40,503 bases of DNA from positions 1 through 40,503 of the IMG/VR virus record IMGVR_UViG_3300033571_014509. One strand, written 5' to 3'. This DNA comes from a virus. The position numbers were made by a program, and so were the translations under genes. A model generated the notes under the pieces. That model searched no databases, was not told the DNA's origin, and saw only the letters and a program-made list of their open reading frames with translations. Positions within the stretch are counted from its first letter, which is position 1. Every line of letters begins with the position of its first letter. Shown one piece after another: positions 8,482 through 40,309 of this stretch.

Positions 8482-8494
8482 GGTTTATGATACC
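8482..8494 (-). promoter_or_regulatory. GGTATCATAAACC motif upstream of 8115-8453
   Basis: The 13-bp motif reads GGTATCATAAACC on the minus strand, 28 nt before the ATG at 8453. It contains TATCAT as a possible -10. Confidence 0.4.
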
Positions 8495-8503
8495 CGTCAA
8501 GCC

Positions 8504-8752
8504 CTATCCCTCGAAGCCGGTACGGGGGAAGGAGGACAAGAGGGTTTTCCCGCGAGTCGGGTGGCGCTTGACCTTGGCTGCCAGCAAGCGTTCTACCTCC
8601 TCAGTAAACTCGTCGAGGAAGCAACTACCCACTCGGGCAAAGCGTCCTGGGTGGGTACGATTAGCGGCCTGTAGGGCGAACTCCTTGGCGTAGGCTCGGT
8701 TGATGAGGGTGCTGGTGCGGTTGCGTGTGGGTTTGATGTTTTCTGTGGTCAT
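8504..8752 (-). CDS. Small basic phage protein, weak histone-fold-like resemblance (82 aa)
   Basis: Starts MTTENIKPTRNRTSTLINRA. The segment AKEFALQAANRTHP, then GRFARVGSCFLDEFTEEVER and HPTRGKTL follow the order helix / RV-x2-FLD helix / GKTL. That order recalls small phage and bacterial single-histone-fold proteins (RVxxxFLD...; GRKTLxPxD). The final helix is missing, so this is only a suggestion. Its start leader is duplicated at the next gene upstream (8975-8997). Confidence 0.5.
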   Translation of the reverse strand: MTTENIKPTRNRTSTLINRAYAKEFALQAANRTHPGRFARVGSCFLDEFTEEVERLLAAKVKRHPTRGKTLLSSFPRTGFEG

Positions 8753-8778
8753 GGTGTGTAGGTGCTTTATTTGACTTT

Positions 8779-8985
8779 CTATATCTTTTCTCGGACGGAA
8801 GGGCGTCTTCGATTCCAGCGGATAAGAGCCGATCGGAGGCTATCTCCGAAGGGGCCATTCGCCTCGCATTTGTAGCAGACAACCCAGGTGGTATTTCCAC
8901 CGGGCGTCCGGTTATACGCCATCTTTGTGTACCCGCAGAACGGGCACGGCTTAGCTCTGGGTACGAAGATCGTATCTGTGGTCAT
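8779..8985 (-). CDS. Lar-family-like restriction alleviation / zinc-ribbon protein (68 aa)
   Basis: Start at ATG 8985 (MTTDTIFVPR); a longer frame upstream is not needed. KPCPFCGYTKM ... WVVCYKCEANGP ... ALIRWNRR is the Lar-type arrangement: a CPFCG knuckle, a second CxxC, and a WN-R-R end. Lar/Ral-like proteins modulate host type I restriction-modification; the same zinc ribbon also occurs in phage proteins of unknown role. The two-CxxC zinc site is clear, the antirestriction role is inferred. Confidence 0.7.
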   Translation of the reverse strand: MTTDTIFVPRAKPCPFCGYTKMAYNRTPGGNTTWVVCYKCEANGPFGDSLRSALIRWNRRRPSVREKI

Positions 8986-9123
8986 GGTGTGTAGGTGGTT
9001 AGGGGTTAAAAAAAGGAACCGCTTTGTCGATTGGCGACTGGCTGCGGCGTACCAGTGAAAGGAGTTAGCCCTCGATGAACGAAAGGACATTCCCGCCGGG
9101 GCTCTGACAACTTACCCGATTGG

Positions 9124-9264
9124 TTACTTAGGCCGGACTTGGGCCAGCTTCTCCCTAAGTGCGGTGGTGTAGAGTGGGCCTTTGTTGGTGGGCCGGATGG
9201 TCTTGCTCGACTTAGCCCGAACTAGGTAAGCCGAGAGCGGTTTGCGGTTAGTATGTTGCTTCAT
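9124..9264 (-). CDS. Small basic protein (46 aa)
   Basis: ATG at 9264 to TAA at 9124. It starts MKQHTNRKPLSAYLVRAKSS and contains KTIRPTNKGPLYTTALREKL. Strongly basic. It fills the space between the Lar-like gene and the hairpin at 9282-9311. ATG follows directly on a GGTATATG segment. No family recognised. Confidence 0.45.
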   Translation of the reverse strand: MKQHTNRKPLSAYLVRAKSSKTIRPTNKGPLYTTALREKLAQVRPK

Positions 9265-9281
9265 ATACCTTTGAAAGGGAA

Positions 9282-9311
9282 AGCCGCTCCCCAGTTTCCC
9301 AAGGAGCGGCT
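9282..9311 (-). terminator. Hairpin terminator after 9319-9579
   Basis: AGCCGCTCC (9282-9290) pairs with GGAGCGGCT (9303-9311), a 9-bp perfect stem with a 12-nt loop. In the minus direction it lies 8 nt past the stop at 9319 and is followed by TTTCCCTTTC. This makes it a fair intrinsic terminator. Confidence 0.6.
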
Positions 9312-9318
9312 CCGTTGA

Positions 9319-9579
9319 CTACTTGTTGGCCTCGTGCTGGATCTCCGAGAGGATCTGCTCAGCAATCTGAGCCTCCTTCTCGGGGTCGCTATCGATCTCC
9401 TCCTCCAGAGCGGTCAAGCTGTCGTCGATGAACTCGAAGAGCAGTTGTCCTGGGTCGGCGGGGGTTTCGTGGGCGGCAGCCACCTTCTGCAACCGGGCAG
9501 AGAGGGCGGCGAGTGTCGGTTTATCCAACAGGCTGATCAGGTCGGCAATGTCGATTGTCGAAGTGGTCGTCGAGGTCAT
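9319..9579 (-). CDS. Acidic helical protein (86 aa)
   Basis: Thr/Ser-rich start (MTSTTTSTIDIADLIS), then predicted helices (PTLAALSARLQKVAAAHE; DDSLTALEEEIDSDPEKEAQ). Net strongly acidic. It is the promoter-proximal gene of the minus-strand run reading left from the divergent region at 9580-9763. No domain recognised. Confidence 0.6.
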   Translation of the reverse strand: MTSTTTSTIDIADLISLLDKPTLAALSARLQKVAAAHETPADPGQLLFEFIDDSLTALEEEIDSDPEKEAQIAEQILSEIQHEANK

Positions 9580-12616: not shown

Positions 12617-13807
12617 TTACTTGATGTTGACCGTGTCGCCAAAGGGGGCGACTCCGGTAGGGTTGTTGTAGGCGCACCAGATGGTCGGGAACGGCCACTC
12701 GTGCGGGGGGAAGGTGCCGTAAAGATCTGTCAGATAGATCAGAACTCGGGGCGTGATGTTGTGCTGGCGAATCCAGTCGCCGACGGGACGGAAGTCTGTG
12801 CCACCGCCACCCTTGGGGGTTAGCTTGATGGTGTCACTGGGGCCGTACTCTTCGGTGGCAGCGATCGCCGCGTCGCAGTAGAGCACCGTCAACTTGCTGG
12901 GCTGGCAACGCTGCACGAGAGAGTTGATCTCGGCCTCGAAGCTGGCCAGCGTGTCGGAGCACCCATAGATACTGCCGGAGGTATCCACGGCTACGACAAT
13001 CTCACCGAGGGTCTCGTCGTGGAGGTCGGGGATGATGATGTCGTGAGGAAGGAATCGGCGGTCAGGCTTGGCCCACGAGTAGTCGTTGGCCGAGGTCTGA
13101 TCGACAAAGCGTTCGAGGATCTGTTGCCAAGGAACCTCGGGATTGACCAGCTTGTCGATGAGTGCCTCGACGCAACCTGGCAACTTACCCTGCATCTTGG
13201 CGGCGGTCGCGGCTTGGATGAGGCGGCGCTCCCACTCGCTCTTCATGTCCTCGGCACTGGTCTCGCCATCCTGAGATGCGGCAGGCTCCTCGAACTCACC
13301 CCAGCCGCCCTCGTCCTTGGTGCGCTGCTTGGACTTGCCGCCCTCGCCCTTGTCCGGTCCGGACTGGGGCTCAGGCTCGGGCTCGGGGGGCTGGTTCTTG
13401 CGAAGGTCAGCGAGCACCTGCTCGGCACTCATGCCGTCATACTTGTGGTCGAGCAACCCGCCTTCGGGCAACTCCAGCCTACGGACTCCGGCGGACTTGT
13501 TGTAGTTATCGAGGAAGTTGTTGATGCAGTAGTCACCTGCGATATTACCCTCCTTGTTCTTGGGGAGGCGGTGCAGGTGGCCGAGTGCAGGGTGAAGAAC
13601 CTCGTGGACAAGAAGACCCGCCACTTGCGATGCAGTTAGCGACTCGATGAAGTCAGGGTTGTACTTGATCACGACGCCATTGGTGCAGGCTGTCGGGATG
13701 GAAGGGTCCTCGACGCGAGGCATCTGTAGCAGAAGCGTTGCGAAGAAGGGGTGATCGAGAACGATCGTTGTGGTTGCGGATGCAATGAGTTCAGATGCTT
13801 TGGACAT
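12617..13807 (-). CDS. DUF2201-like metallopeptidase / VWA protein (396 aa)
   Basis: The N-terminal domain carries HEVLHPALGH (68-77), an HExxH with further His, as in the putative metallopeptidase half of DUF2201. A Pro/Glu/Gly/Lys-rich linker (140-185) follows. The C-terminal domain is VWA-like with an intact MIDAS: DTSGS (275-279), Thr in GGGGTDF (333-339) and Asp in YLTDLYG (358-364). MoxR ATPases and VWA proteins work in pairs, and here the ATPase (14650-15666) and a DUF3150 protein lie just upstream in the same operon. A chaperone or remodelling module is inferred; the target is unknown. Part of the linker is encoded by a degenerate copy of the TTGTCC dyad (13350-13366). Confidence 0.85.
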   Translation of the reverse strand: MSKASELIASATTTIVLDHPFFATLLLQMPRVEDPSIPTACTNGVVIKYNPDFIESLTASQVAGLLVHEVLHPALGHLHRLPKNKEGNIAGDYCINNFLDNYNKSAGVRRLELPEGGLLDHKYDGMSAEQVLADLRKNQPPEPEPEPQSGPDKGEGGKSKQRTKDEGGWGEFEEPAASQDGETSAEDMKSEWERRLIQAATAAKMQGKLPGCVEALIDKLVNPEVPWQQILERFVDQTSANDYSWAKPDRRFLPHDIIIPDLHDETLGEIVVAVDTSGSIYGCSDTLASFEAEINSLVQRCQPSKLTVLYCDAAIAATEEYGPSDTIKLTPKGGGGTDFRPVGDWIRQHNITPRVLIYLTDLYGTFPPHEWPFPTIWCAYNNPTGVAPFGDTVNIK

Positions 13808-14039
13808 AGTAGTTAGGTGGTTGAGGTAGCTCGGTGGTGAATGAGTTGGGGCTGGTAATTAGTCTCCTATGAATTTGCTTAACGCTCAGTGCGGGCGAGT
13901 AACTATCTAGGGGGTAACCATAAAGTTCGCCCGGTTCCAAGTGACTCCCACTTACAAGCCAGGCATGGCTGGAGTAACGGGAAATGTAATAGACATTCAT
14001 CCCTAATCTTCTAGCCGCCTTAATAGAGTCTTTAGTCAA
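13791..14039 (-). CDS. Tandem small protein, copy 3 (82 aa)
   Basis: Starts MTKDSIKAARRLGMNVYYIS and has SSHAWLVSGS, then SPNSFTTE near the end. It aligns by eye with the two genes just upstream (M-T-x2-x-I-x-A-x-RLG-x-x-V-[YF]; Trp-hydrophobic; a P-[HN]-[NS]-F-[TS] end) and is the most diverged copy. Overlaps copy 2 by ATGA (14036-14039) and the VWA gene by 17 bp. Function unknown. Confidence 0.6.
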   Translation of the reverse strand: MTKDSIKAARRLGMNVYYISRYSSHAWLVSGSHLEPGELYGYPLDSYSPALSVKQIHRRLITSPNSFTTELPQPPNYYVQSI

Positions 14040-14266
14040 CGGGTGCGGGGGGTTAGGGTGAAGTTGTGTGGGTAGCGTTTGATATGTTTCCGAACAGCTC
14101 TGGGTAGGATGTAAGACTGACTAGTCAGGGCTCGCACAGAGGGGTGAGTGGGTGATCCAACAAGATCCTCGGAATCAATCTTCCAACCGCCAGCGTGAGA
14201 GCCGTTAGGGTATAGGTAGACAGGGATGCCCAGTCGCAGGGTCGCACGGATCTGTTGCTCGGTCAT
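14036..14266 (-). CDS. Tandem small protein, copy 2 (76 aa)
   Basis: Starts MTEQQIRATLRLGIPVYLYP; HAGGWKIDSEDL and YPHNFTLTPRTR follow. It shares MTEQQIRA-x2-RLG with copy 1 both in protein and in DNA around the start codon (GATCTGTTGCTCGGTCAT repeated at 14249-14266 and 14460-14477), so this duplication is recent. RATLRLG overlaps a degenerate 8-bp repeat copy. Confidence 0.65.
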   Translation of the reverse strand: MTEQQIRATLRLGIPVYLYPNGSHAGGWKIDSEDLVGSPTHPSVRALTSQSYILPRAVRKHIKRYPHNFTLTPRTR

Positions 14267-14477
14267 AAGTAGTCGAGAAGTTGTGGGGTTTGTTTTGTAG
14301 GTGCCATTCGACTTGGCGGTGTGTCAGAGTTCCTCCGCACTTGTCTGTGGGGTTCCCCCAGTGACGGTCGGAGGGAGCGAGGCACGGTTTGATTTCCCAG
14401 ACGCGGCCTGTCCGCTCGGAGCGCAAGAAGACTTGCACCCCGAGACGGAAGCAGGCGCGGATCTGTTGCTCGGTCAT
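14205..14477 (-). CDS. Tandem small protein, copy 1, with out-of-frame 3' extension (90 aa)
   Basis: Starts MTEQQIRACFRLGVQVFLRS, with GRVWEIKPC and KPHNFSTT. The family end PHNF lies just before the ATG of copy 2. This copy has lost a stop there and reads on for about 20 residues out of frame over copy 2, to 14205. Overlaps the upstream gene by ATGA. Function unknown. Confidence 0.6.
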   Translation of the reverse strand: MTEQQIRACFRLGVQVFLRSERTGRVWEIKPCLAPSDRHWGNPTDKCGGTLTHRQVEWHLQNKPHNFSTTYDRATDPCDPATGHPCLPIP

Positions 14478-14650
14478 GGGTGCATACGTTGAACGGCTGC
14501 GTTTAGCTGATTGCAGCGTTTGGCCGCGTCGTACTCGGACTCGTAATTGGCTACTAACTTTTTCGCACCTTCGTCTCCGATGGCGTAGACTCGGTAAACA
14601 AGTCTGTAGTGATTGTTGGAGTCCACACACTTGAAGTAGTCGTACCGCAT
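14474..14650 (-). CDS. Hypothetical protein, 58 aa
   Basis: Start at ATG 14650 (MRYDYFKCVDSNNHYRLVYR), overlapping the last base of the MoxR-like stop. A longer frame upstream only shadows the ATPase gene. A short beta segment is followed by a helix (ESEYDAAKRCNQLNAAVQRM). No family recognised. Confidence 0.55.
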   Translation of the reverse strand: MRYDYFKCVDSNNHYRLVYRVYAIGDEGAKKLVANYESEYDAAKRCNQLNAAVQRMHP

Positions 14651-15666
14651 TAGGCGAATACCTCCTGATTCTCCGTGACCCACGTGGTGAACGCGGGGGT
14701 AGCGCACAGAGAGGTGTTGAGGTTGACGGCAGTCTTCAGTGCAAAGACTGAGAACTCCTTGGGGAAGCGATCGACGTAGGTCAGGAAGTTGGCCATCGTC
14801 TTGGGCTTCACCTTCTTGGCGAGTCCGGCGCACGTGGCGTAGATCACACTGGGATCGGTCGGCACGTCGGCCTTCTCGGGGTTGAGCAGGACGGCGTCGA
14901 GGTCGGGCAGCTTCTCGTAGACTCCGAGGAAGCCGAGGAACTCAGCCGAGGCACCGGAACCAAGCACACCCTCCAGCAGTGCGTGGCGCACGTGGCGGTC
15001 GGTGCAGGTGGCCGTGACTGTAGCGGCTTTCTCCCAAGTACGGGGCGAAGCAAAGTTGCTCACGCCGTCCCACTGGGCACCATTGAAGGTGGAGAGGAGG
15101 TCGGGGCGGAAGCGGATGAACGCGATGACCAAGGGGTCAACGCCATTCTTCTGAGCCCACCTGATCCAGCTATCCAGATCGAGGCGCACCTTGATGTTGA
15201 CGATGCGGTTCACGACTGCCGAGCTGAGCTTCTCGATGTTGACTCGATCCTCGGCGCGGTTGCCAAGCAGGCAGACGAACGAGTTCTCAGGCAACACGTG
15301 CTCCCCTACCCTGCGGTCGTTGAGTAGTTGCAGGGCTACGTTCTGCACCGCTCTCGTAGCGCAGTTGAACTCCTCTAGCCCGATGACAGGGTTAGCGGTC
15401 TTCGGCCAAAAGGAAGGCTTGGAGAAGCGCATGGTCTTGTGACCCGACTCGTCGGTGTCCAAGTACGGGAAGCCCTGCACATCCTGCGGGGCGTAGTAGG
15501 CAAGGCGGGCGTCGATGAACTCAGCACCGATCTCTCGGGCATACTCGGCGACGACAGCGGACTTACCGACTCCTGGCTGTCCTTGGATGAAGGGGTTGAG
15601 CTTGGCGGCGTGGCAGTCTTTGAGGACTTGTTTGAGCTGTGACGTTGTTACCTCGATGGTGGTCAT
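14650..15666 (-). CDS. MoxR-like AAA+ ATPase (338 aa)
   Basis: Walker A is GQPGVGKS (29-36), then DARLAYYAPQDVQGFP. The Walker B region is VIGLEEFNCA, with LEEF rather than DEE; sensor 1 is CLLGNR, followed by LSSAVVNRI, as in MoxR-type AAA+ ATPases. Known MoxR proteins act as chaperones for VWA partners, for example in inserting cofactors or activating enzymes. The VWA/metallopeptidase gene lies 0.8 kb downstream and the DUF3150 gene just upstream, a set I recall from other phages. The start leader is a 29-bp duplicate of the next gene's leader. Confidence 0.85.
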   Translation of the reverse strand: MTTIEVTTSQLKQVLKDCHAAKLNPFIQGQPGVGKSAVVAEYAREIGAEFIDARLAYYAPQDVQGFPYLDTDESGHKTMRFSKPSFWPKTANPVIGLEEFNCATRAVQNVALQLLNDRRVGEHVLPENSFVCLLGNRAEDRVNIEKLSSAVVNRIVNIKVRLDLDSWIRWAQKNGVDPLVIAFIRFRPDLLSTFNGAQWDGVSNFASPRTWEKAATVTATCTDRHVRHALLEGVLGSGASAEFLGFLGVYEKLPDLDAVLLNPEKADVPTDPSVIYATCAGLAKKVKPKTMANFLTYVDRFPKEFSVFALKTAVNLNTSLCATPAFTTWVTENQEVFA

Positions 15667-15690
15667 ATTGTTATTAGGGTTAGGGTTGTT
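15662..15690 (-). repeat. Duplicated start-codon leader, copy A
   Basis: Twenty-nine bases spanning the MoxR-like start codon and its leader are identical to 15966-15994 at the next gene's start. Both contain TTAGGGTTAGGG on the plus strand. Confidence 0.9.
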
Positions 15691-15697
15691 GAATCGA

Positions 15698-15970
15698 CTA
15701 GCAGTAGACCGAGTCGGTCTTGAACGGGGGTAGGAAGCCCCCGATCTCGTTGAGGTTGTTCTTCAGGGTGATGCCGCAATCCAACGGGTTCGCCCGAGCT
15801 TCATCCCATCGGTAGCTGTACTGACCGATCTCCTCGCCGTGTACGCAGATGCCACGGCGGCGGTGGATGAACAGCACGACGCCCCCATCGGGGAACTTTC
15901 CAAGGTAGGGATACTTACGAGGCTTGGGCTCAGTCGCTGAGGTTAGGTTGGGTTCGAGGATGGAAGTCAT
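15698..15970 (-). CDS. Small conserved-looking phage protein (90 aa)
   Basis: A low-complexity start (MTSILEPNLTSATEPKPRKY) is followed by PYLGKFPDGGVVLFIHRRRG, SYRWDEARANPLDCGITLKN and GFLPP. The YLG...VVLF ... G ... W-E ... G-ITLKN pattern is shared by small phage proteins of unknown function. It sits between the DUF3150 and MoxR-like genes. Confidence 0.6.
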   Translation of the reverse strand: MTSILEPNLTSATEPKPRKYPYLGKFPDGGVVLFIHRRRGICVHGEEIGQYSYRWDEARANPLDCGITLKNNLNEIGGFLPPFKTDSVYC

Positions 15971-15994
15971 ATTGTTATTAGGGTTAGGGTTGTT
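15966..15994 (-). repeat. Duplicated start-codon leader, copy B
   Basis: Identical over 29 bp to 15662-15690. It carries the ATG of 15698-15970. Confidence 0.9.
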
Positions 15995-16004
15995 TCAGGG
16001 TTGT

Positions 16005-16017
16005 GGTTTGTGATACC
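16005..16017 (-). promoter_or_regulatory. GGTATCACAAACC motif upstream of 15698-15970
   Basis: Minus-strand GGTATCACAAACC, 34 nt before the ATG at 15970. It abuts the TAG stop of the DUF3150 gene. Confidence 0.4.
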
Positions 16018-17105
16018 TACCAGCCAAGTTTGGCTAGGAGGGCGGCTGAATCGTTGTCCGGTCCGGACTCGGTAGCTACCGAATCAAGAGCCTCGGTGAG
16101 CGGGGTCTCCTCACTCACCGATTCCTCGGTCCATTTCTTTATGGGGGCGGTGTAGGCGGGATCGCCAACCTTGGCGTTGAGTTTAAGCGTTTTAGTCCGT
16201 GGCTTGCGGGGTGCTACTACCTTGGGTGCAGGGATGGTGCCACCGAGCGACTCGATGATCGGGGCGGCATTGCTCACGGCGTCCGAGCGGTAAACCTTGT
16301 CGTCGCGAAGGCGATCGGGGTTGCAGGTCAACCGCTGGCGGATCGCGTAGACCGCGTTAACGATCTCGTCATCCTCCAAGATGTTGAGGGTCTCGGCGCG
16401 GTCACTTGCTTTCCGAAGATTCTCGACAAGGCTATCCTTGAACGTGGCTTCAGGGTTCTGCAACGTCTCGGAGAACTTGATGAGTGGGGCGAGCAACACC
16501 TCGCGGATGTAGGGGGCAACACTCTCGGCCTTCTCCTTGAACGTCTCGGCCACCGCCTCGTTGATGGAGTCAGCGATCTCGCTAAGCACGTTGAGCTTGG
16601 CGTCACGCGGGTCAGCGATCGGGAACACGTCCAGCTTGTGATGGAAGCGGGAGACAACCTCAGTGACAGCGGGGTAGTCGCTATCCTTGAAGGTTCCGTT
16701 AAGCAGACGCTTCGCGCCTTCGAGGTAGATAATGTAGTCGTCGGCCAACTTCTTTACCAAGATTTCTCGGTCGTCGAGCAGTGGGTTCAGCGCGGCACGG
16801 AGTTCGAGGAACTTGGTAGCGGGTAGTAGTCCTACGCCTCGGGCGTATGGCGCACAGAACTTGTCGAAGGTCGAGCGGAGCTTGTTGTCGAGCTTCTCAA
16901 TCTTCTCCAGCACGTCGGCAGTAGGCAGGGTATTCTTGCGAACACTCAGCACGTTGTCGTCGGAGCGGATGTTATGGGCAGAGCGTACCTTGATACTCTC
17001 GGCCTTGTCTGTCTTGACGGGGTCGTAGCGTCCGAGGTGCAGGGCAACTAGGAGCGCGGAGCTTTTGATTTTGTCGGTGATCTGGTCGTGGGTAATAGCG
17101 GTCAT
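16017..17105 (-). CDS. DUF3150-type phage protein (362 aa)
   Basis: Mostly helical, starting MTAITHDQITDKIKSSALLV. Features include NTLPTADVLEKIEKLDNKLR, YARGVGLLPATKFLELRAAL and FHHKLDVFP. The opening K-SSALLVAL, the repeated helices and the position next to MoxR and VWA genes match DUF3150. The C-terminal 70 residues are low-complexity and Lys/Thr/Ser-rich. DUF3150 has no known biochemical role; partnership with the ATPase is inferred from gene order. Its leader shares 18 bp with the gene starting at 19416. Confidence 0.75.
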   Translation of the reverse strand: MTAITHDQITDKIKSSALLVALHLGRYDPVKTDKAESIKVRSAHNIRSDDNVLSVRKNTLPTADVLEKIEKLDNKLRSTFDKFCAPYARGVGLLPATKFLELRAALNPLLDDREILVKKLADDYIIYLEGAKRLLNGTFKDSDYPAVTEVVSRFHHKLDVFPIADPRDAKLNVLSEIADSINEAVAETFKEKAESVAPYIREVLLAPLIKFSETLQNPEATFKDSLVENLRKASDRAETLNILEDDEIVNAVYAIRQRLTCNPDRLRDDKVYRSDAVSNAAPIIESLGGTIPAPKVVAPRKPRTKTLKLNAKVGDPAYTAPIKKWTEESVSEETPLTEALDSVATESGPDNDSAALLAKLGW

Positions 17106-17150
17106 TTTGTTTTAGGGTTTGCTTGTCCGGTCTGGACAAGGGTTAAGGGA

Positions 17151-17357
17151 TCAAAGGTTGAGGGTTAGTTGATGGAGGTTAGTGTGAGGTAAGTTGATGC
17201 AGTTGCGTGGTAGTTGAATATACCCGCCGACTTTCCAATGGCGGTCGATGCGAGCGATCCATGCCCGGCAATGGTTCTGACAGCGGTATGCTTGGTCATC
17301 CCATCGCCGGAGCTGGTTGATCGCGCTCAACTGCTTCGCTTTACGCAGGGCGCTCAT
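17151..17357 (-). CDS. Small basic protein (68 aa)
   Basis: Starts MSALRKAKQLSAINQLRRWD. Rich in Arg, Trp, Cys and His (YRCQNHCRAWIARIDRHW), ending LHQLTLNL. It overlaps the upstream gene by 17 bp and is followed by a TTGTCC dyad. No family recognised; the C-terminal part looks low in complexity. Confidence 0.5.
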   Translation of the reverse strand: MSALRKAKQLSAINQLRRWDDQAYRCQNHCRAWIARIDRHWKVGGYIQLPRNCINLPHTNLHQLTLNL

Positions 17358-17727
17358 CCTTGGTTGAGGTTGCGGTTGCCTTGGCGATTGCGGCTTGTGC
17401 CTTTAGGTAGATTCGATCAAGAAGGTTTGGGGCATCGGATTCGTCGCTCTCTGCGAGTTCTTTCATAGACTGCAAAGCGGCCAGCAGATCTTTAGTAGCC
17501 TCCTCGACCGCTTTGTTGATGGCATCGTTGATGGCCGAGTCGAGATCCTCGATGTAGTCGGCGACTTCGGAGGTTTCCATCCTCTCGAAGGGTTCCCAGA
17601 TAAGGATGTCTTTGTGATCCTCGGAGACCTTTTCGAGTATGGTCTCGAAGTCGTTTTTCTTTGGGTAATCCGACAGGATAAACTCAATCGCGATCTTCTC
17701 GGAGGGTAGTAGTTTGGGATTATTCAT
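17341..17727 (-). CDS. Acidic helical protein (128 aa)
   Basis: Starts MNNPKLLPSEKIAIEFILSD. Long predicted helices (VADYIEDLDSAINDAINKAV; TKDLLAALQSMKELAES) with a net acidic charge suggest a coiled-coil or dimer. No domain recognised. Confidence 0.6.
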   Translation of the reverse strand: MNNPKLLPSEKIAIEFILSDYPKKNDFETILEKVSEDHKDILIWEPFERMETSEVADYIEDLDSAINDAINKAVEEATKDLLAALQSMKELAESDESDAPNLLDRIYLKAQAAIAKATATSTKDERPA

Positions 17728-17732
17728 AGGTG

Positions 17733-17891
17733 TTAGGAGTTAAGGACAAAGGCCAAGGTCAGACCGAACGCGGTTGCAAGGATGCAGAAGAACAGGAGAG
17801 CCAAGATGGAGTAGCTCCATTCGATCTCTCGCTTGGTCTGCTGTCGCAGGAGGTAGGGTCGGACTAGGGTGTCGAGTTCTTGTGTGGTCAT
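17733..17891 (-). CDS. Small single-TM protein (52 aa)
   Basis: ATG 17891 to TAA 17733. The polar N-terminal helix (MTTQELDTLVRPYLLRQQ) leads into WSYSILALLFFCILATAFGL, a clear membrane helix with a short tail. A longer frame on the same strand overlaps it but has no sensible composition. A start with the standard CCTAAAAC-type leader supports this frame. Confidence 0.6.
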   Translation of the reverse strand: MTTQELDTLVRPYLLRQQTKREIEWSYSILALLFFCILATAFGLTLAFVLNS

Positions 17892-17910
17892 AAACTTGTT
17901 TTAGGTTCAC

Positions 17911-17947
17911 AACTTGTTGCATGGTATATGCAACCATGCAACAAGTT
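17911..17947. promoter_or_regulatory. Perfect 14-bp inverted repeat enclosing a GGTATATGCAACC motif
   Basis: AACTTGTTGCATGG (17911-17924) and CCATGCAACAAGTT (17934-17947) are exact complements around a 9-nt spacer. The centre contains the GGT...ACC motif (17923-17935). It sits 20-56 nt before the ATG at 17891. An operator or promoter-overlapping site is likely; as RNA it would be a very stable hairpin. Confidence 0.65.
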
Positions 17948-17978
17948 TGTGGGTCATAGGGTTGTTGTCCGGACTGGA

Positions 17979-18647
17979 CTAGGCGGCAAGTAGTCGGCGG
18001 CGTGCAGGTAACGTGCTGGCAAGCACCGCGTTACGAGCGGCACGGGCATGACTGTGAGCGTGGCATTGATCTTTAGCCGCCTCGAATCGGGCGGGCAGAG
18101 TCAGGCCGAAACGCTGTATCGAGACAGCAGCTTTGTGGCACCATTCGAGGACAAACTCGAAGGGATACGGGACGCGGCTTCGCAGATACGAGGCAACATA
18201 CTCATCCAGCCACTTGATCTCGTGGTAGAACACTAGGGCACCGAGGTCGGCCTCGGTCACGCTATCGAGCAAGAGGTTTGCGCTGTAGTCCTTCACCAGT
18301 CGATAGATCTCGGAGATGCCCTGTGCGGGGAGGTCATCCACTTGAGGCAGATAGACCAGACCATCGGAAGGAATGGCTCCTCGTACCGCCTCGATATGCC
18401 GCCTTGTCGTCGGGCTGAAGGATCGCAGGGTTACAAGGTACCAGAGCTTTCCGGTGTCAGGTGCCTTCCACTTCCGAGCAATGCAGAAGTGCTGGCCGTA
18501 GGAGTAGATGCTACCGGTGACGGGGTGCCGATCGCAGGATGACCCGTAGGCAATCATCCGGTTCTTGTCGGTGTTGGCACGCTCGGTGATGGTGCCGCTC
18601 ACCCAGTCTCGGGCAAGCTCGTCGTTGTTCTTGTAGTATGTTTTCAT
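17979..18647 (-). CDS. SYGxHF-type phage protein (222 aa)
   Basis: Starts MKTYYKNNDELARDWVSGTI; the diagnostic stretch is IYSYGQHFCIARKW followed by WYLVTLRSFSPTTRRHIEAV. I recognise the iYSYGxHFxIA...T-x-SxTTxxH pattern from a large family of small phage proteins without known function. The C-terminal half (LVFYHEIKWLDEYVASYLRS and an Ala/Arg-rich tail) is not part of that motif. The stop codon is formed by the right arm of a TTGTCC dyad. Confidence 0.7.
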   Translation of the reverse strand: MKTYYKNNDELARDWVSGTITERANTDKNRMIAYGSSCDRHPVTGSIYSYGQHFCIARKWKAPDTGKLWYLVTLRSFSPTTRRHIEAVRGAIPSDGLVYLPQVDDLPAQGISEIYRLVKDYSANLLLDSVTEADLGALVFYHEIKWLDEYVASYLRSRVPYPFEFVLEWCHKAAVSIQRFGLTLPARFEAAKDQCHAHSHARAARNAVLASTLPARRRLLAA

Positions 18648-18674
18648 GGTAGGTTCGTTTCGTTATTGGGTTGC

Positions 18675-18687
18675 GGTTAATGATACC
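18675..18687 (-). promoter_or_regulatory. GGTATCATTAACC motif upstream of 17979-18647
   Basis: Minus-strand GGTATCATTAACC, 27 nt before the ATG at 18647 and immediately beside a TTGTCC dyad (18688-18704). Confidence 0.4.
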
Positions 18688-18711
18688 TTGTCCGGACAGG
18701 ACAAAGCGGGG

Positions 18712-19416: not shown

Positions 19417-19468
19417 TTTGTTTTAGGGTTGAAGGGTTGCTTTGTCGCTTGTCCGGTCTGGACAAGGG

Positions 19469-20403: not shown

Positions 20404-20680
20404 AAGGCGCAGGTTCATTTTTATAGGGTTGCCCCGCACTTGCTGGCGGCAGGGCTTAGCCGTTGGAATCTGATGGATCGACTTGCTGGCGTTGATCTGG
20501 CCATTAGCTTTTAGCTCCCGACTGGCTGGCTAGGGTGTTGGCCGTAACTCGTATGAGTTTGAGTCCCACTTTCCTTCCAACTCTGGACACCATTCGAGAC
20601 CGCTGGGGTCATGGGGTCGGGGCTAAAGATGATGTAAAAGTGTCGCGGTTAATGATACCGAGCCGCTTGTCCGGACTGGA
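20404..20680. other. Gap of about 280 bp with a small hairpin and no gene
   Basis: GCGCC-AAA-GGCGC (20398-20410) is a short hairpin near the start of 19895-20386, and a GGT...ACC motif lies at 20647-20659 with no obvious gene for 260 bp downstream. No tRNA folds well here. A short untranslated RNA from that motif is possible. Confidence 0.3.
20647..20659 (-). promoter_or_regulatory. GGTATCATTAACC motif, gene target unclear
   Basis: Identical to the copy at 18675-18687 and, like it, located just downstream of a TTGTCC dyad. The next minus-strand ATG (20386) is 260 nt away. Confidence 0.35.
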
Positions 20681-20786: not shown

Positions 20787-20799
20787 GGTTGCATATACC
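20787..20799. promoter_or_regulatory. GGTTGCATATACC motif between divergent genes
   Basis: Lies 22 nt before the minus ATG at 20764 and 32 nt before the plus ATG at 20832, so it could serve either or both. Confidence 0.4.
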
Positions 20800-22557: not shown

Positions 22558-22590
22558 TAGACAAACTCGAATTAAAAGGTATCATACACC
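22558..22590 (+). promoter_or_regulatory. Promoter of the HNH gene overlapping a GGTATCATACACC motif
   Basis: TAGACA (22558-22563), 16 bp, then TATCAT (22580-22585), the latter inside GGTATCATACACC (22578-22590). The ATG is 6 nt past the motif, so the transcript leader would be very short. Confidence 0.5.
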
Positions 22591-26278: not shown

Positions 26279-26291
26279 GGTATGTGCTACC
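26279..26291 (-). promoter_or_regulatory. GGTAGCACATACC motif upstream of 25870-26262
   Basis: Palindromic GGTA...TACC with a 5-nt centre, 16 nt before the ATG at 26262 and 3 nt past the stop of the helicase gene. Confidence 0.4.
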
Positions 26292-31152: not shown

Positions 31153-31164
31153 GGTATATTAACC
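31153..31164 (-). promoter_or_regulatory. GGTTAATATACC motif upstream of 30355-31107
   Basis: A 12-bp variant, 45 nt before the ATG at 31107, with an A/C-rich leader between. Confidence 0.4.
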
Positions 31165-31167
31165 CCC

Positions 31168-33669
31168 TCAAGCCTTGAGAGCTTTGAGGACGTGAATAAC
31201 CCCTTCCTCGCGGAGGGCACCTTTGTCTCGTAACGCATCCTCCAACGTCTGCTTGACTTCCGCCTTTTTGCCCTTGGGGGCACGTTCCGAGACAAACCGT
31301 TCAAGACTGGGCACCGACACACGGGTGCAGGCCAGTAGATATTCTTCCAGGGAGACGAGGTGCTTGACCGCCTCGTAGCCCATGAGGGGCTCCTCAATGG
31401 AGCGGGGGAGACGGCGCTGATCCAACCGGAAGCCGGGGATCTCTGCGCCCTCTTCGAGTGCTTGGCGAAGGATTTCTTTCTTGGTGCTCTCGCACCACCC
31501 CTGGAGGAGGGTGGCTAGTTTGAGCAACTTCGCACGATCCGCCGGGGTCCCGTCCAACGATACGGACTGAGGGACGTCAAAGCCGGATTTCTGACCGATG
31601 ACAAGGGCCTTCTCTGCCAGAGCTTTGCACGACCCCTGCTTCGAGCAGTAGTCGCAGACTCCTTCGGTCGGATTAAATTCCTGAGCCAGCTTAGCACGGG
31701 CGATGATGGTCGAAAGCCTGAGCTTTATCCGATCAACGTCCGATCGCTTGAACGTAGCGTAGGAGATTTCCTGTCTACGTGGGAGGACCAGGTAGAAAGC
31801 CAGCTCAGTGACGTCGGGGAACTTTTGGAAGACTCCGAGGGTGTAGGCCCAGACTTGGGTGTTGACCTCAGCGTCTTCAACAGCGCCGAAACCAGTTTTC
31901 CAGTCGTACATGACCGCAGTTTTCTCTCCAGTTGCTCGGTCTTGATACACGTCCAGAAGATCACTCGTTCCAAAAGTGCCGTTATCGCCAAGTCGCATTT
32001 CAAGAAAGATCTCCTGATGAGAAGCCACGAGATCTGCGGAAGCAGCTTTATCTCCTCGGGACTGAGCAAGAAATTGGAGGCACCAGATGGCGAGCTGCTG
32101 CTCGGTTTCGTCGGTGAGGAGTGAAGGGTCTTCTTTTTCGACCGCCTCGTGAATGCGGGTGCCTGCTTCCGCGATCGGATTGGTTCCGCCCCGGCTTCGG
32201 TAGGACGGACACGCTTCAAAGTTTTTGAGGCCGGAGGGTGAGAATTCTGCATGGGGGCGGGTTTCGGGGTTGGTGTGCTGAACGACGGAAGAGGTCTGCT
32301 TGGTCATGGGAATTTTAAGGTTTTCCGCTTGGTGCGGTTGATTTGTGGTATGTGATACCCTTAGATCGGAATAAGCACAAGTACTATTTTCATTCAAAAG
32401 TTTCAGGTTCTCGATTTTCTTGCGGACGCTCTTTTCCACCTTCTCTTCGACAGTTCCGGCGGCGAATAAAATGCGTTGCATCGATGGCGTCTTACCACCG
32501 GCGCGATGAACGCGCCCGATGACCTGGACAAGATTCTTCTCGTTCCAATCCGGCGAAATGATCGCGGCCCTGGGATGCTTGCCCGTGACATCGTGCAAAC
32601 TGACGCCCACGCCTCCTGCTGCCGTGTTGCATAGTATCACACGCGACTCGTCCGATTGAAAAAGTTCGATGGCTTTCTGTCTTTCTTCAGCGGTTTGATC
32701 CCCATGGATCAAGGATAGTCCAGCTTTCGGCCACAGCTTTGGTACGAGGGCTTTGAGAGTCGCATCGAAGTTGACGAAGATCGCGACACTCTTGCCTTCC
32801 GCAAGCAGATCCTCAGCCATCTCGACGATCACCGGAACCTTGAGCAGTTCGACACGCTGGCGAGCGCGAAGCTGAGCCACAAGAGCCTCGGCTGCGGAGT
32901 TCTTTTTGTCGGTCTTGCTGGCTTTCTCAAGCTCCAGAAGTTCGGCTTCCATCTCGTCGTAGATCTCTCCGATCTCGTCGCCAAAGTCCAAGGGTTCCGT
33001 GATGACCTGGGTCTCTGTGAAGTGATCCCCGAGTTCCTTGACGGTCATGCGCGAGCACCGATGAGCGATCTGCTCGGCAATGTTCTTGATGTGCTTCGGG
33101 TCGCCCATGAAATCGATTCCGTTCCATCGGTTCTTCGAGCAACCGTTCTTCAGGCACCACTGCCAGAAGTTGCCCAGCCCGTGGGCTCCCAGCAGATAGC
33201 CAGCGGCACGCATCTGCGTGGGGGAACTAGCCAGGGTGGCCGAGAGCATAAGCACGTGGTAGCGATCCTTCGCCTCGATCAGCATCTTTGCGTTCTTGGT
33301 GTCGATACCGGCGCATCGGTGTGCCTCGTCGAAGATAATCAAGGAGTGGTCTCCCAAGTCCCATACCCACTTGCGCTTCTCCCAGTGGCCGTACTGGGTT
33401 TTTCCCCCGCGTAATTTATCATAATTGATAACGTGGGCGGGTGAGATCCCTCGGTCTTCGAGTTCGCGCTTCCATGCCGGGATGACGGCCTTCGGGCAGA
33501 CGACCAGGACAGGCATGAGATCCGTCTTATTAGCTCTGCGGGCGATTTCAGCCCCAACGATAGTCTTCCCAGTTCCGGTTTCGGAGCTGTCTAAAGCGGA
33601 TTTGTGATCTCGGAGGATACTCATGAGCTTTGTCATGTGCTCCTCCTGGCGTGGGTAGAGAGTTTTCAT
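31168..33669 (-). CDS. SNF2-type helicase fused to Cas4/RecB-like nuclease (833 aa)
   Basis: Residues 1-430 are an SF2 helicase: ETGTGKT (30-36), IIFDEAHR (about 111-118), MLSATL, LIHGDQT and VIGRVHRAGG (motif VI). Residues 455-833 are a PD-(D/E)XK nuclease: FSPSGLKNFEACPSYRSRGG, GTSDLLDVY (catalytic Asp), AVMYDWKTG (D-x-K) and QVWAYTLGVF. CDYCSKQGSC, with an upstream Cys, resembles the Cas4/AddB iron-sulfur site. The junction (about 430-455) is translated from DNA that looks intergenic, with a perfect GGTATGTGATACC palindrome (32347-32359) and a Met455 (32307) that would be a normal start. Likely a fusion by stop loss, or two genes. A DNA-end-processing or recombination role is inferred. Confidence 0.85.
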   Translation of the reverse strand: MKTLYPRQEEHMTKLMSILRDHKSALDSSETGTGKTIVGAEIARRANKTDLMPVLVVCPKAVIPAWKRELEDRGISPAHVINYDKLRGGKTQYGHWEKRKWVWDLGDHSLIIFDEAHRCAGIDTKNAKMLIEAKDRYHVLMLSATLASSPTQMRAAGYLLGAHGLGNFWQWCLKNGCSKNRWNGIDFMGDPKHIKNIAEQIAHRCSRMTVKELGDHFTETQVITEPLDFGDEIGEIYDEMEAELLELEKASKTDKKNSAAEALVAQLRARQRVELLKVPVIVEMAEDLLAEGKSVAIFVNFDATLKALVPKLWPKAGLSLIHGDQTAEERQKAIELFQSDESRVILCNTAAGGVGVSLHDVTGKHPRAAIISPDWNEKNLVQVIGRVHRAGGKTPSMQRILFAAGTVEEKVEKSVRKKIENLKLLNENSTCAYSDLRVSHTTNQPHQAENLKIPMTKQTSSVVQHTNPETRPHAEFSPSGLKNFEACPSYRSRGGTNPIAEAGTRIHEAVEKEDPSLLTDETEQQLAIWCLQFLAQSRGDKAASADLVASHQEIFLEMRLGDNGTFGTSDLLDVYQDRATGEKTAVMYDWKTGFGAVEDAEVNTQVWAYTLGVFQKFPDVTELAFYLVLPRRQEISYATFKRSDVDRIKLRLSTIIARAKLAQEFNPTEGVCDYCSKQGSCKALAEKALVIGQKSGFDVPQSVSLDGTPADRAKLLKLATLLQGWCESTKKEILRQALEEGAEIPGFRLDQRRLPRSIEEPLMGYEAVKHLVSLEEYLLACTRVSVPSLERFVSERAPKGKKAEVKQTLEDALRDKGALREEGVIHVLKALKA
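32347..32359 (-). promoter_or_regulatory. GGTATCACATACC palindrome inside the helicase-nuclease frame
   Basis: Perfect 5-bp arms around GTG, 39 nt before the internal ATG at 32307. It matches the intergenic motif used elsewhere. Confidence 0.4.
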
Positions 33670-37925: not shown

Positions 37926-38390
37926 CTATGGTTGTGGTTTCATATACCTATCGAGGTAAATGTGGAGTAGGTGCAGTGCATCAGCCTCGTTGTCGTCTTT
38001 CGGCGCATAACCCCGCGACCTTGCGGCCTGGATCATCTGCTCCTTGGACGCGGCTCCGTTCTTAGTCGCGGCTTTCTTGATCGTGCCAACGTGAACCCCT
38101 TCATAGGGAATCTCCTTGGCCTCGCACTCGGTTTGCAGTATAGCCAGCAATCCGCAGTAGCATTTCGCCGCCGCACCACTTGACCACCGCATGACCTCCT
38201 CGAAAACAATGAGTTCGGGTTTGATTACCTCGATCTGATCGCGCAACCAACTGCGGAATTTGAGGAACCGGACGCCCGGTCCGTCCTGCTTCTTGAGCTT
38301 GAATCCCTCGCTACCAGACGTGACAAGGCCGGACGAGCTGTGCGCCCATCCGGTTTGCGTGGCTAGATCTAGTGCGAGGATTGCTTTCAT
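37926..38390 (-). CDS. RuvC-like Holliday junction resolvase (154 aa)
   Basis: RNase H-fold motifs: ILALDLATQTGWA (first Asp, residue 8), ELIVFEEVM (Glu) and KDDNEADALHLLHIYL (last acidic pair). Length and order match phage RuvC-like crossover-junction endonucleases. It would resolve recombination or replication branches. ATGA overlap with the excisionase-like gene upstream. Confidence 0.85.
   Translation of the reverse strand: MKAILALDLATQTGWAHSSSGLVTSGSEGFKLKKQDGPGVRFLKFRSWLRDQIEVIKPELIVFEEVMRWSSGAAAKCYCGLLAILQTECEAKEIPYEGVHVGTIKKAATKNGAASKEQMIQAARSRGYAPKDDNEADALHLLHIYLDRYMKPQP
37936..37948 (-). promoter_or_regulatory. GGTATATGAAACC motif upstream of 37673-37918
   Basis: Lies in the last codons of the RuvC-like gene, 17 nt before the ATG at 37918. 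Confidence 0.35.
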
Positions 38391-38716
38391 CCCAGTCGTG
38401 CTTTGACCCGCTTCGCGGCGGGTGATTTGCCTTCCTCAATCCAGGCGATAACGTCGCTCTCAAGGAATCTCGCCCTCCCCATAGCGATCGAGTAGGGCAA
38501 AGGATTCCGAGCTTGGCGGATGTAGTTATCAATACTCCGCTTCCCGACCCCAAGTCGTCTGGCCACACCTCCCTTGTCGTAGACGGTGCTAGGAGCAGCC
38601 GGTTCGAGGCCGTTGGTGTCCACGTCTTCGAGTTCGATCCTCACTCTCCCGTTGGGGAGAGAGATCACTCGGAAGCTGTGAGCTGCCTCTAAAGTTATTG
38701 CAGATGTTCGTCGCAT
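38387..38716 (-). CDS. AlpA/excisionase-like helix-turn-helix protein (109 aa)
   Basis: The C-terminal half VYDKGGVARRLGVGKRSIDN, then YSIAMGRARFLESDVIAWIE, is a MerR-type winged HTH of the AlpA/HTH_17 class (x-K-x-VA-x-x-L-G-V ... RFxxxDVxxWI). The N-terminal half is unrelated and beta-like. In this position, close to the integrase, an excisionase or early regulator is likely. Confidence 0.75.
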   Translation of the reverse strand: MRRTSAITLEAAHSFRVISLPNGRVRIELEDVDTNGLEPAAPSTVYDKGGVARRLGVGKRSIDNYIRQARNPLPYSIAMGRARFLESDVIAWIEEGKSPAAKRVKARLG

Positions 38717-38722
38717 AGGCTT

Positions 38723-38734
38723 GGTATATTCACC
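38723..38734 (-). promoter_or_regulatory. GGTGAATATACC motif upstream of 38387-38716
   Basis: A 12-bp variant only 6 nt before the ATG at 38716. A -10 here would give a nearly leaderless transcript. Confidence 0.4.
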
Positions 38735-38743
38735 CCTACGCCG

Positions 38744-38764
38744 CTAAAGCCTTTTGGGCTTTAG
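38744..38764 (-). terminator. Hairpin after 38782-38976
   Basis: CTAAAGCC (38744-38751) pairs with GGCTTTAG (38757-38764). It lies 17 nt past the stop at 38782. No U run follows in the minus direction, so termination is unproven. Confidence 0.35.
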
Positions 38765-38781
38765 GGAGCTGGGGTTAAAGG

Positions 38782-38976
38782 TTACTCGAATATGGGTTGG
38801 ATGAAGCGAGTGTTGGGATTGTCCCTGAGTTTTTCCGCAAGCGCAAATGTCGCGGCTCGGATGAGGGCAGAGGGTTGCAGTCCATTCTTCCGGGCGATTT
38901 CTTTGAAAAGATCCCAGATTTCCTTTTCCTCGATATACACCACCCTACGGCGGTGGTCGGCTATTTTGTTTGGCAT
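38782..38976 (-). CDS. Ribbon-helix-helix-like DNA-binding protein (64 aa)
   Basis: MPNKIADHRRRVVYIEEKEI, then FKEIARKNGLQPSALIRAAT, repeats the pattern of 6042-6245 (RRV-YIE ... IA-K-GL-PS--IR). A candidate repressor or copy-control protein given its position between integrase and early genes; target unknown. Confidence 0.65.
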   Translation of the reverse strand: MPNKIADHRRRVVYIEEKEIWDLFKEIARKNGLQPSALIRAATFALAEKLRDNPNTRFIQPIFE

Positions 38977-38987
38977 GGTCGTGTTTT
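38970..38987 (-). repeat. Start leader identical to 20380-20397
   Basis: Eighteen bases around the ATG (TTGGCATGGTCGTGTTTT on the plus strand) are shared with the unrelated gene starting at 20386. Confidence 0.85.
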
Positions 38988-39060
38988 ATTTTAGGTAGGC
39001 GTGATTGCCTATGTGAAAGTAGTAATGCAAATGCGCGGTATATGCAAGTAGTTAAAACGC

Positions 39061-40239
39061 TTATTCAACAGATACCCCTTTTGGGGTGATACCGAACCAC
39101 TTTTCGGCGTAGTCGGGCAGTACCAAGCCCCGGTAATTGCTCTTGATCATCTCAGGGCTGTTTCCGCATTCCTCTGCGACGACTCCGGGACTGGCGTCCG
39201 TCTGAGCCATCCGAGCTGAAATGTAGCCTTTACGCAGGGCATTATCTTTCCACTGCACCCCTGCGGCCTTGGCGATGTCCGGAGTGAATTTGTGGATTTG
39301 ATCCTCGGGGTATGGGGAGACCATGCCTTTTTTCTCCCCCTTATGGTTCTTGAGCCAAGCGATGAGGTTGTCAGGCATGATAGCAAGCCGTCCGCTTTCG
39401 GTCTTCGTGATCTCGGGGCCGAGGCGGATGCGTTTTTGATCCATGTGGATGTCCTCCCACGTGAGTCGGCAGGTTTCCGAAATACGCACCCCAGCAAAAG
39501 CACCGATGGCCAGTAAAGGCACGAACCGGGGTTCTGCGTGGGTCAGCAGCTTCTCCATCTCCTCGGGGGTGTAGAGGACGATTTTTTTCTTTTTCTCGGG
39601 GTAGCTTTTGATCTTGGTGATCTCCAGATCGCCTTTTGGCAGATACTCGCCGTATTCCTGAGCCCAGGTGAAAAATGTACGTACATAGCTCAAGTGGTTG
39701 TTGCGAGTCTTCCCCTCCTCGGAGAGACCCCTGAAATACCCGTCCAGTTCTTTGACGGTGATTTTGTCGAGCGTCTTGTTGAAGGCCCTGCCGAACTTGA
39801 AGAGGATCGACTTCGCAGTCCGGTAGTGGCGGCTCTTGGTGTCCGTGAATTTTTTCAGGTACTCGGTGACCGCATCGAGCGCCGAGATCTGCTTGCTGGC
39901 TTGCTTGGCTTTATGGGCGAGGAAGTACCGGACGGCATCCCCAATCGTGGTTCCATGCTCGGCGAGCAGCTTCTCGTACTCCGCGAGCAGGACGGCTTTC
40001 TCCGAGGAGATGTCTTGTCGCAAGACCAGCCCACGCTTGAGGTCGTCGAGGATCTCTTCGGCTCGCTGGTGTGCCTGAGTCTCGTCGGCAAAGCCTTTTC
40101 GCTGGCGTCCATTCTCATTGACCCAGGCCACCACGTACCTCTCCCCGTCTGGGGTTTTGTTGCGGTAGATCTTTACGCTTCCGAAGCGGGTCTTCTGGAC
40201 AAACGGATACTCAATAATAGTGCGTTTTTTCGTGGTCAT
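39061..40239 (-). CDS. int: Tyrosine recombinase / phage integrase (392 aa)
   Basis: An N-terminal arm-binding and core-binding region (TDTKSRHYRTAKSILFKFGR-type helices) is followed by the catalytic domain: RISETCRLTW (Arg I), KTESGR (Lys), NALRKGYIS (Arg II; the usual preceding His is Asn), ECGNSPEMIKSNYRGLV (the usual His is Asn; Tyr nucleophile). The C-terminal form GNSPxMIxxxYRxLV recalls integrases from Verrucomicrobiota-like hosts. Catalytic Arg-Lys-Arg-Tyr are all present. It reads away from a possible attP at 40417. Confidence 0.93.
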   Translation of the reverse strand: MTTKKRTIIEYPFVQKTRFGSVKIYRNKTPDGERYVVAWVNENGRQRKGFADETQAHQRAEEILDDLKRGLVLRQDISSEKAVLLAEYEKLLAEHGTTIGDAVRYFLAHKAKQASKQISALDAVTEYLKKFTDTKSRHYRTAKSILFKFGRAFNKTLDKITVKELDGYFRGLSEEGKTRNNHLSYVRTFFTWAQEYGEYLPKGDLEITKIKSYPEKKKKIVLYTPEEMEKLLTHAEPRFVPLLAIGAFAGVRISETCRLTWEDIHMDQKRIRLGPEITKTESGRLAIMPDNLIAWLKNHKGEKKGMVSPYPEDQIHKFTPDIAKAAGVQWKDNALRKGYISARMAQTDASPGVVAEECGNSPEMIKSNYRGLVLPDYAEKWFGITPKGVSVE

Positions 40240-40283
40240 ATTTGTGTTTTAGGTGCCTAGACCATGGGACACTTGGGGACACT

Positions 40284-40309
40284 TGTCAACCCCAAAGGTG
40301 GAATATACC
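40284..40309 (-). promoter_or_regulatory. int: Integrase promoter region
   Basis: Minus-strand TTGACA lies at 40289-40284, just after a GGTATATTCCACC motif (40309-40297), 45-70 nt before the integrase ATG. GGGACACTT is directly repeated nearby (40265-40284). Which element is the true -10 cannot be decided by eye. Confidence 0.4.

What the first reader, a model, noticed from the sequence alone, without database searches (positions are those of the whole stretch)
8482..40309. Phage-wide quasi-palindrome GGTAT...ACC upstream of a dozen genes
Thirteen sites (8482, 16005, 17923, 18675, 20647, 20787, 22578, 26279, 31153, 32347, 37936, 38723, 40297) share GGT-N6/7-ACC with an AT centre such as TATCAT or TATATG. 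Eleven lie 6-57 nt before a start codon; 20647 lies 260 nt from the nearest start and 32347 lies inside a frame. Two copies (32347, 26279) are true palindromes. It looks like a phage-specific promoter or operator regulon with no recognised repressor in the window.
Basis: seen in the sequence. Interest (0 to 1): 0.75.

Follow-up and report, generated by a model that had tools for sequence, protein, structure and literature searches.

The report
Phage-wide 13-bp promoter operator
A short near-palindrome (GGTWTAWTAWACC) sits in front of about fifteen transcription units of this uncultivated phage, often directly after the -35 box of a promoter, and is gained and lost together with a small pair of phage DNA-binding genes, so it is probably the dispersed binding site of the phage's own master regulator.

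Summary
The 13 sites are real and not chance. The motif is a 13-bp near-palindrome, consensus GGTWT[A/C]WTAWACC. It recurs upstream of orthologous genes in about a dozen related IMG/VR phages: early, integrase, structural-side and regulator genes alike. Noncoding density is 1-7 per kb in most leave-one-genome-out scans. The 13-mer often lies immediately after a TTGACA-like -35 hexamer: the majority hexamer at exactly offset -6 is TTGACA. The best cases have a -10-like hexamer 17 bp further on, so the motif fills the promoter spacer. Its arms do not covary, so it is not a hairpin. Every relative with the motif whose locus is covered carries an adjacent gene pair: a 64-aa RHH-like protein (window 38782-38976) and an HTH protein (38387-38716). 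G018, apparently complete and nested inside the motif-bearing clade, has lost both genes and the motif at all 9 orthologous loci tested, yet keeps the TTGACA promoter at one of them. Best reading: a dispersed operator regulon of a phage-encoded regulator, RHH most likely, acting at host-type promoters, probably as a repressor. Binding, direction of regulation and the RHH fold are inferred, not shown. It resembles SPbeta SPBRE/MrpR and L5 stoperators in layout, without shown membership of either.

The parts
8482..8494 (-). operator GGTATCATAAACC, 28 nt before ATG 8453; preceded by TTGACG (8495-8500), CACATT 17 bp further on (8472-8477)
   Evidence: G001 orthologue has the identical 13-mer
16005..16017 (-). 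operator GGTATCACAAACC, 34 nt before ATG 15970
17923..17935 (-). operator GGTTGCATATACC, 31 nt before ATG 17891, embedded in a longer inverted repeat
18675..18687 (-). operator GGTATCATTAACC, 27 nt before ATG 18647, abuts palindrome B
20647..20659 (-). operator GGTATCATTAACC, 34 nt before ATG of a 33-codon ORF (20612)
20787..20799 (+). operator between divergent genes: 27-codon ORF (minus, ATG 20764) and HTH-like 233-aa gene (plus, ATG 20832)
22578..22590 (+). operator GGTATCATACACC, 6 nt before ATG 22597
26279..26291 (-). operator GGTAGCACATACC, 16 nt before ATG 26262; G001 has GGTAGCATACACC
31153..31165 (-). operator GGGTTAATATACC, 45 nt before ATG 31107; orthologous site in nearly all motif-bearing relatives
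32347..32359 (-). operator GGTATCACATACC inside the fused helicase-exonuclease ORF, 39 nt before in-frame ATG 32307
37936..37948 (-). operator GGTATATGAAACC, 17 nt before ATG 37918; TTGACG precedes the G001 site
38723..38735 (-). operator GGGTGAATATACC, 6 nt before ATG of the HTH gene 38387-38716
40297..40309 (-). operator GGTATATTCCACC, 57 nt before integrase ATG 40239, upstream of the integrase -35 TTGACA (40284-40289)
40364..40376 (+). extra operator-like site GGCATAATATACC (not in the finding)
39037..39048 (-). degenerate operator CTTGCATATACC, 60 nt before the RHH gene; right half conserved in relatives
38782..38976 (-). 64-aa RHH-like protein, best candidate binder; stretch RRRVVY..EE invariant in 11 aligned phages
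38387..38716 (-). 109-aa HTH protein (HTH_17; PHROG excisionase and transcriptional regulator), second candidate
40266..40283 (-). direct repeat AGTGTCCCC-AAGTGTCCC in the integrase promoter spacer; possible HTH site
31168..32307 (-). exonuclease that starts behind site 32347 (separate gene in most relatives)

Best explanation
The motif is a dispersed 13-bp pseudo-palindromic operator (GGTWTAWTAWACC) of a regulator encoded by the phage itself. It lies directly behind the -35 hexamer in the 17-bp spacer of host-type promoters (TTGACA-[13-mer]-RCAA-[-10]), so a bound dimer would occupy the promoter and most simply block RNA polymerase. One regulator thereby controls most transcription units: replication genes, integrase, structural-side genes and its own genes. 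The regulator is most likely the 64-aa RHH-like protein at 38782-38976, possibly with its neighbour HTH 38387. Shown: the sites, their conservation and position, the non-covarying arms, co-occurrence with the RHH-HTH pair, and their joint absence in one nested relative. Inferred: the RHH fold, binding, and repression rather than activation.
For: Consensus from 72 deduplicated upstream sites is symmetric at core positions not imposed by the search (T5 57/72, T8 57/72, A9 49/72). Leave-one-genome-out PWM: 1-7 noncoding hits per kb in most motif-bearing phages, none noncoding in G017 (44.7 kb) and G018 (65.8 kb). The TTGACA match peaks only at offset -6 (z 3.6; 19 of 75 sites with at least 4/6, 2-5 at the other offsets quoted); TTGAC at -9 to -6: 11 of 76 vs 0.56 expected. 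Examples: G016 TTGACA|GGTATCACATACC|ACTT|CATAAC, G015 TTGACA|GGTATCATACACC|GCAT|CATATT, window TTGACG|GGTATCATAAACC|ACGA|CACATT. RHH and HTH genes are adjacent in all 12 motif-bearing records covering that locus plus four short contigs, and in neither G017 nor G018. G018 nests in the motif-bearing clade (support 91/89), has 123-bp terminal repeats, has a methyltransferase-like gene where RHH-HTH should be, and scores -10 to 7.7 bits at 9 of 9 orthologous loci, most relatives 11-21. At one of these it keeps TTGACA-17-CATAAC, the same hexamers and spacing as G016; at another a relic GTTATGTGATACC remains. The RHH gene has its own site.
Against: The co-loss is essentially one event (G018), with G017 as a sister lineage that may never have had the system. 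About three quarters of sites have no good -35 and most lack a recognisable -10, so promoter function is well supported only for a subset. RHH and HTH always co-occur in the close clade, so co-occurrence cannot separate them. The host is unknown. Most sites were selected partly on GG..CC and AT content, so only core symmetry, placement and co-loss are independent tests. A few orthologous sites in motif-bearing phages are also weak or absent.
Confidence: 0.6

Rival explanations
1. The binder is the HTH protein 38387-38716 (HTH_17, excisionase/regulator-like), not the RHH protein.
For: Same co-occurrence and co-loss as RHH; strongly conserved (65-99%); its gene has an operator 4-16 nt upstream in the window, G001, G002 and G003; clear DNA-binding profile hits.
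Against: HTH_17/excisionase proteins usually bind direct repeats (general knowledge), and such repeats occur in the integrase promoter spacer of ten motif-bearing phages and are degraded in G018, which gives this protein another target. G019 has an RHH homologue and an operator-like site before its exonuclease, but no detectable HTH homologue.
Confidence: 0.2
2. The motif is itself a promoter element (for example GG-TATAAT-AWACC as a -10 box, or the site of a phage-specific sigma factor or polymerase).
For: Positions 3-8 of the consensus read TATAAT; a purine usually follows the 13-mer; at 40364 a TTGACG lies about 18 bp before TAATAT.
Against: The element is symmetric, its halves occur in either order, and the TTGACA-like hexamer abuts it at -6 rather than at about -21. 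In G018 the TTGACA promoter persists at one locus without it. No single-subunit RNA polymerase was found (but its controls did not ring).
Confidence: 0.15
3. An RNA or DNA hairpin in the leader (N4-type hairpin promoter or mRNA element).
For: Some copies have perfect 5-bp arms and a 3-nt loop (10 of 47 distinct 13-mers); the ATPase is closest to proteins of N4-like phages.
Against: Arm positions pair no more often than independent (4-10: 14 vs 17.0; 5-9: 29 vs 31.0). The giant protein carries a Kinase-PolyVal domain, with no sign of a virion polymerase. No Rfam match.
Confidence: 0.04
4. The sites are bound by a host regulator; the link with RHH-HTH is incidental.
For: Direct binding evidence is lacking; the co-loss is one event.
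Against: The motif is absent from close relatives G017 and G018 while their gene order and leaders are similar; the RHH gene itself carries a site.
Confidence: 0.1

Closest known systems
SPbeta prophage SPBRE / MrpR master repressor (PMC10516654)
   Same: One short element repeated in many promoter regions of one phage and recognised by one phage-encoded master repressor; the element was found in silico long before its binder.
   Different: MrpR has a tyrosine-recombinase fold and SPBRE is a 15-bp motif; here the element is a 13-bp palindrome and the candidate is a 64-aa RHH-like protein.
Cluster A mycobacteriophage operators/stoperators (L5-type repressor; PMC9283540)
   Same: Many 13-bp sites dispersed over the genome, in promoters and short intergenic gaps.
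   Different: L5 sites are asymmetric, bound by a monomer and orientation-dependent; these are palindromic and abut -35 boxes.
Cluster K mycobacteriophage start-associated sequences SAS/ESAS (PMC3203893)
   Same: 13-bp sequences just upstream of many start codons, conserved across a phage cluster, some with inverted repeats upstream.
   Different: SAS is GGGATAGGAGCCC, asymmetric and essentially in one orientation, with no linked regulator reported there; the present motif is symmetric and tied to a regulator locus.
Small RHH repressors (Arc/CopG type, from general knowledge)
   Same: Small dimeric proteins that bind short pseudo-symmetric operators and often control their own gene.
   Different: Classically one or a few operators; here about 15 across a phage genome; the fold is not proven.

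Membership tests
Dispersed phage operator regulon (general kind) | Same site in many promoter regions of one phage, depleted in coding DNA and in relatives without the regulator | tested here: met
Dispersed phage operator regulon (general kind) | Specific binding by a phage-encoded regulator | not testable with these tools
   only co-occurrence and co-loss with RHH-HTH
L5-type stoperator system | Asymmetric 13-bp site whose orientation follows transcription | tested here: not met
   symmetric consensus
Cluster K SAS | GGGATAGGAGCCC with at most two deviations, one orientation | tested here: not met
   consensus GGTWTAWTAWACC against PMC3203893
SPbeta SPBRE/MrpR | Recombinase-fold repressor binding the repeated element | tested here: inconclusive
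   only a tyrosine integrase was recognised; its binding to the motif is untested
N4-type virion RNA polymerase hairpin promoters | Self-complementary hairpin plus a virion T7-like polymerase | tested here: not met
   no arm covariation; giant protein has Kinase-PolyVal; PF00940 absent but controls silent
Ribbon-helix-helix proteins | Profile match above curated cut-off or predicted RHH fold | tested here: inconclusive
Sigma70-type promoter with operator in the spacer | TTGACA then 16-18 bp then -10 hexamer, operator between them | tested here: inconclusive
   met for a subset: TTGACA-like hexamer at -6 in 19 of 75 sites, -10-like hexamers 17 bp on in the best ones; not met in the majority

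The most novel reading that the evidence does not exclude
A two-protein control circuit new to phages: a 64-aa RHH-like protein acts as master regulator of nearly all early and late transcription units through a palindrome in the promoter spacer, while its partner HTH protein controls the integrase through direct repeats in that promoter's spacer. One lineage (G018) has discarded the circuit and its operators have decayed.
Probability: 0.3. Interest if true: 0.65.

Novelty: new member of a known kind. Interest (0 to 1): 0.5.

Why it matters
It identifies, in a phage clade for which no named isolate was found here, a complete predicted regulon (operator, target genes, candidate regulator) from sequence alone, supported by a natural loss of regulator and operators together. 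If confirmed it adds a palindrome-binding, probably RHH-based system to the few known phage-wide operator networks (L5, SPbeta), and gives a handle on how operator sets decay once a phage drops its master regulator.

Tried and rejected
Vegetative promoter of a phage polymerase: the giant protein is a Kinase-PolyVal polyvalent protein and PF00940 gave nothing, but the controls were silent too. Hairpin/N4 promoter: no covariation. HTH-like gene 20832-21533 as regulator: present in motif-less G018. Host identification: the genome-contig scan gave only distant hits (best 38%, a short MAG contig). Named phages: only distant polymerase and ATPase matches, no HTH match. Half of the pattern hits (L095, L096, L099) were not pursued and are probably chance. 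Distant relatives with an RHH homologue (L181-L184 and others) show GGT-N5-ACC sites before the gp34-like gene, too few to judge. Palindrome B (TTGTCC-N5-GGACAA) was considered as a second operator or terminator and not resolved.
Full report
Observation. All thirteen sites exist. Most belong to minus-strand genes, where they read GGTATCATAAACC followed by an A/C-rich leader and ATG. GGT-N7-ACC is enriched (19 against 8.6, none of 100 shuffles as high); GGT-N6-ACC alone is not. In seven related phages GGT is the only trimer whose N7 palindrome with AT-rich core is strongly enriched in noncoding DNA (35 hits, next 10). 20647 precedes a 33-codon ORF. 32347 lies where helicase and exonuclease genes have fused: the ORF is single in the window, G001 and G002, but split by a stop codon in eight relatives, with the exonuclease start just behind the site.

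Relatives. The helicase-exonuclease ORF finds 10 IMG/VR relatives at 68-91% identity, and a helicase alignment finds a graded series below that. Orthologous upstream regions keep the motif while its letters change: before the gp34-like gene it reads GGGTTAATATACC, GGTATAATATACC, GGTATATTATACC, GGTATATTCAACC, GGTATGTGAAACC, GGTTTAATACACC or GGTGTATTACACC. From 72 deduplicated sites the consensus is GGTWT[A/C]WTAWACC. Sites occur before replication genes, the integrase, the ATPase, the regulator genes, and two genes (401 and 751 aa) that lie on the terminase side of G001; these two have no PHROG match, so 'structural-side' is inferred from position.

Statistics. With a matrix trained without the genome scanned, the window has 11 noncoding hits and 9 within 65 nt upstream of a start (2.1 expected if random; 2 hits in the reversed control). 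Most other motif-bearing records behave alike, although G010 has 10 control hits and G019 no noncoding hit. G017 and G018 have none in noncoding DNA. Limits: gene starts come from simple ATG ORFs, relatives share orthologous sites, and site selection used GG..CC and AT content.

Promoter context. Across 75 sites the match to TTGACA peaks at a single offset, -6, directly against the first G (z 3.6; 19 sites with 4 or more of 6, against 2-5 at the other offsets quoted); the majority base at each of these six positions spells TTGACA. TTGAC itself occurs at -9 to -6 in 11 of 76 sites (0.56 expected). In the best cases a -10-like hexamer follows 17 bp later: CATAAC, CATATT, CATAAG, CACATT. Most sites lack a good -35 or -10, so the promoter reading is firm only for a subset. 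Shine-Dalgarno-like motifs are rare (7-17% of genes). The arms do not covary, which speaks against a hairpin and for two protein half-sites.

Candidate regulator. The window gene 38782-38976 encodes a 64-aa protein with an invariant RRRVVY..EE stretch followed by two stretches that look helical, as in RHH proteins (my reading, not a prediction). It lies directly upstream of HTH protein 38387 (HTH_17; PHROG excisionase and transcriptional regulator). Both genes are found in every motif-bearing record that covers the locus; neither is in G017 or G018. The RHH gene carries its own operator-like site with a conserved right half in relatives. G019, more distant, has a 33% RHH homologue and an operator-like site before its exonuclease, without a detectable HTH homologue.

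Natural loss. In a tree of helicase, exonuclease and polymerase, G018 nests within the motif-bearing clade (91 and 89), while G017 is sister to it (100 and 95). G018 has identical 123-bp ends, as do G014 and G015, so it is probably complete. Between its integrase and glycosyltransferase, where G015 and G016 have RHH-HTH, it has a methyltransferase-like gene (by eye). At nine orthologous loci its best site scores -10 to 7.7 bits; most relatives score 11-21, and the 99% point of a shuffled null is 8.5. At the 751-aa gene it nevertheless keeps TTGACA, 17 bp, CATAAC, as in G016. Loss of regulator and operators together, with that promoter retained, is the strongest evidence here, but it is one event.

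Explanation. The motif is best read as the dispersed operator of a phage-encoded regulator that occupies the promoter spacer. Repression is the simplest consequence of that position; activation is not excluded. RHH is preferred to HTH because HTH_17 proteins usually bind direct repeats (general knowledge), and just such repeats (for example GTGTCACCAAGTGTCACC) fill the integrase promoter spacer in ten motif-bearing phages and are degraded in G018.

Known systems. The layout resembles SPbeta SPBRE/MrpR (PMC10516654) and L5-type stoperators (PMC9283540), and superficially cluster K SAS (PMC3203893). It is not a member of the latter two: their sites are asymmetric or of another sequence. Literature searches of an open-access library found no phage-wide RHH operator network, which is weak evidence of novelty.

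Noticed in passing
window 13348-22425 (about ten copies, e.g. 17121, 17963, 18686, 19447, 19838, 20665, 21478, 21918, 22407): A second repeat family, palindrome TTGTCC-N5-GGACAA, sits between genes, often overlapping the upstream TAG stop. G010 has TATCCGATATCGGATA about ten times instead, at comparable intergenic positions. Possibly a second, faster-changing operator or an intercistronic signal.
   Followed up: partly
window 40266-40289, minus strand: Integrase promoter: TTGACA followed by a 10-bp-spaced direct repeat (GTGTCMCC) inside the spacer, conserved in ten motif-bearing phages, degraded in G018.
   Followed up: partly
window 31168-33669: Helicase and exonuclease genes are fused into one ORF in three phages, reading through the operator and leader; split in eight relatives. 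A sequencing error is unlikely since three records agree.
   Followed up: yes
window 20149-20254, 5605-5646, 25454-25495: 8-bp tandem repeats (GGATTGCA/GGGTTGCA) in several places.
   Followed up: no
window 1-4731: C-terminal part of a giant polyvalent protein with Kinase-PolyVal domain (PF18762); 2700-3050 aa ORFs in complete relatives.
   Followed up: partly
L181-L184, L187, L198, L201, L202, about 2.4 kb upstream of the helicase: Distant RHH homologues (MPNQLKPGTRRLSYVE...) in relatives with about 33% helicase identity; some carry GGT-N5-ACC before the gp34-like gene.
   Followed up: partly
window 20681-20764, minus strand: A 27-codon ORF (MTPILLNALGFALYSAFCAFIIFCLFA) that looks like a small membrane protein, with its own operator.
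   Followed up: no
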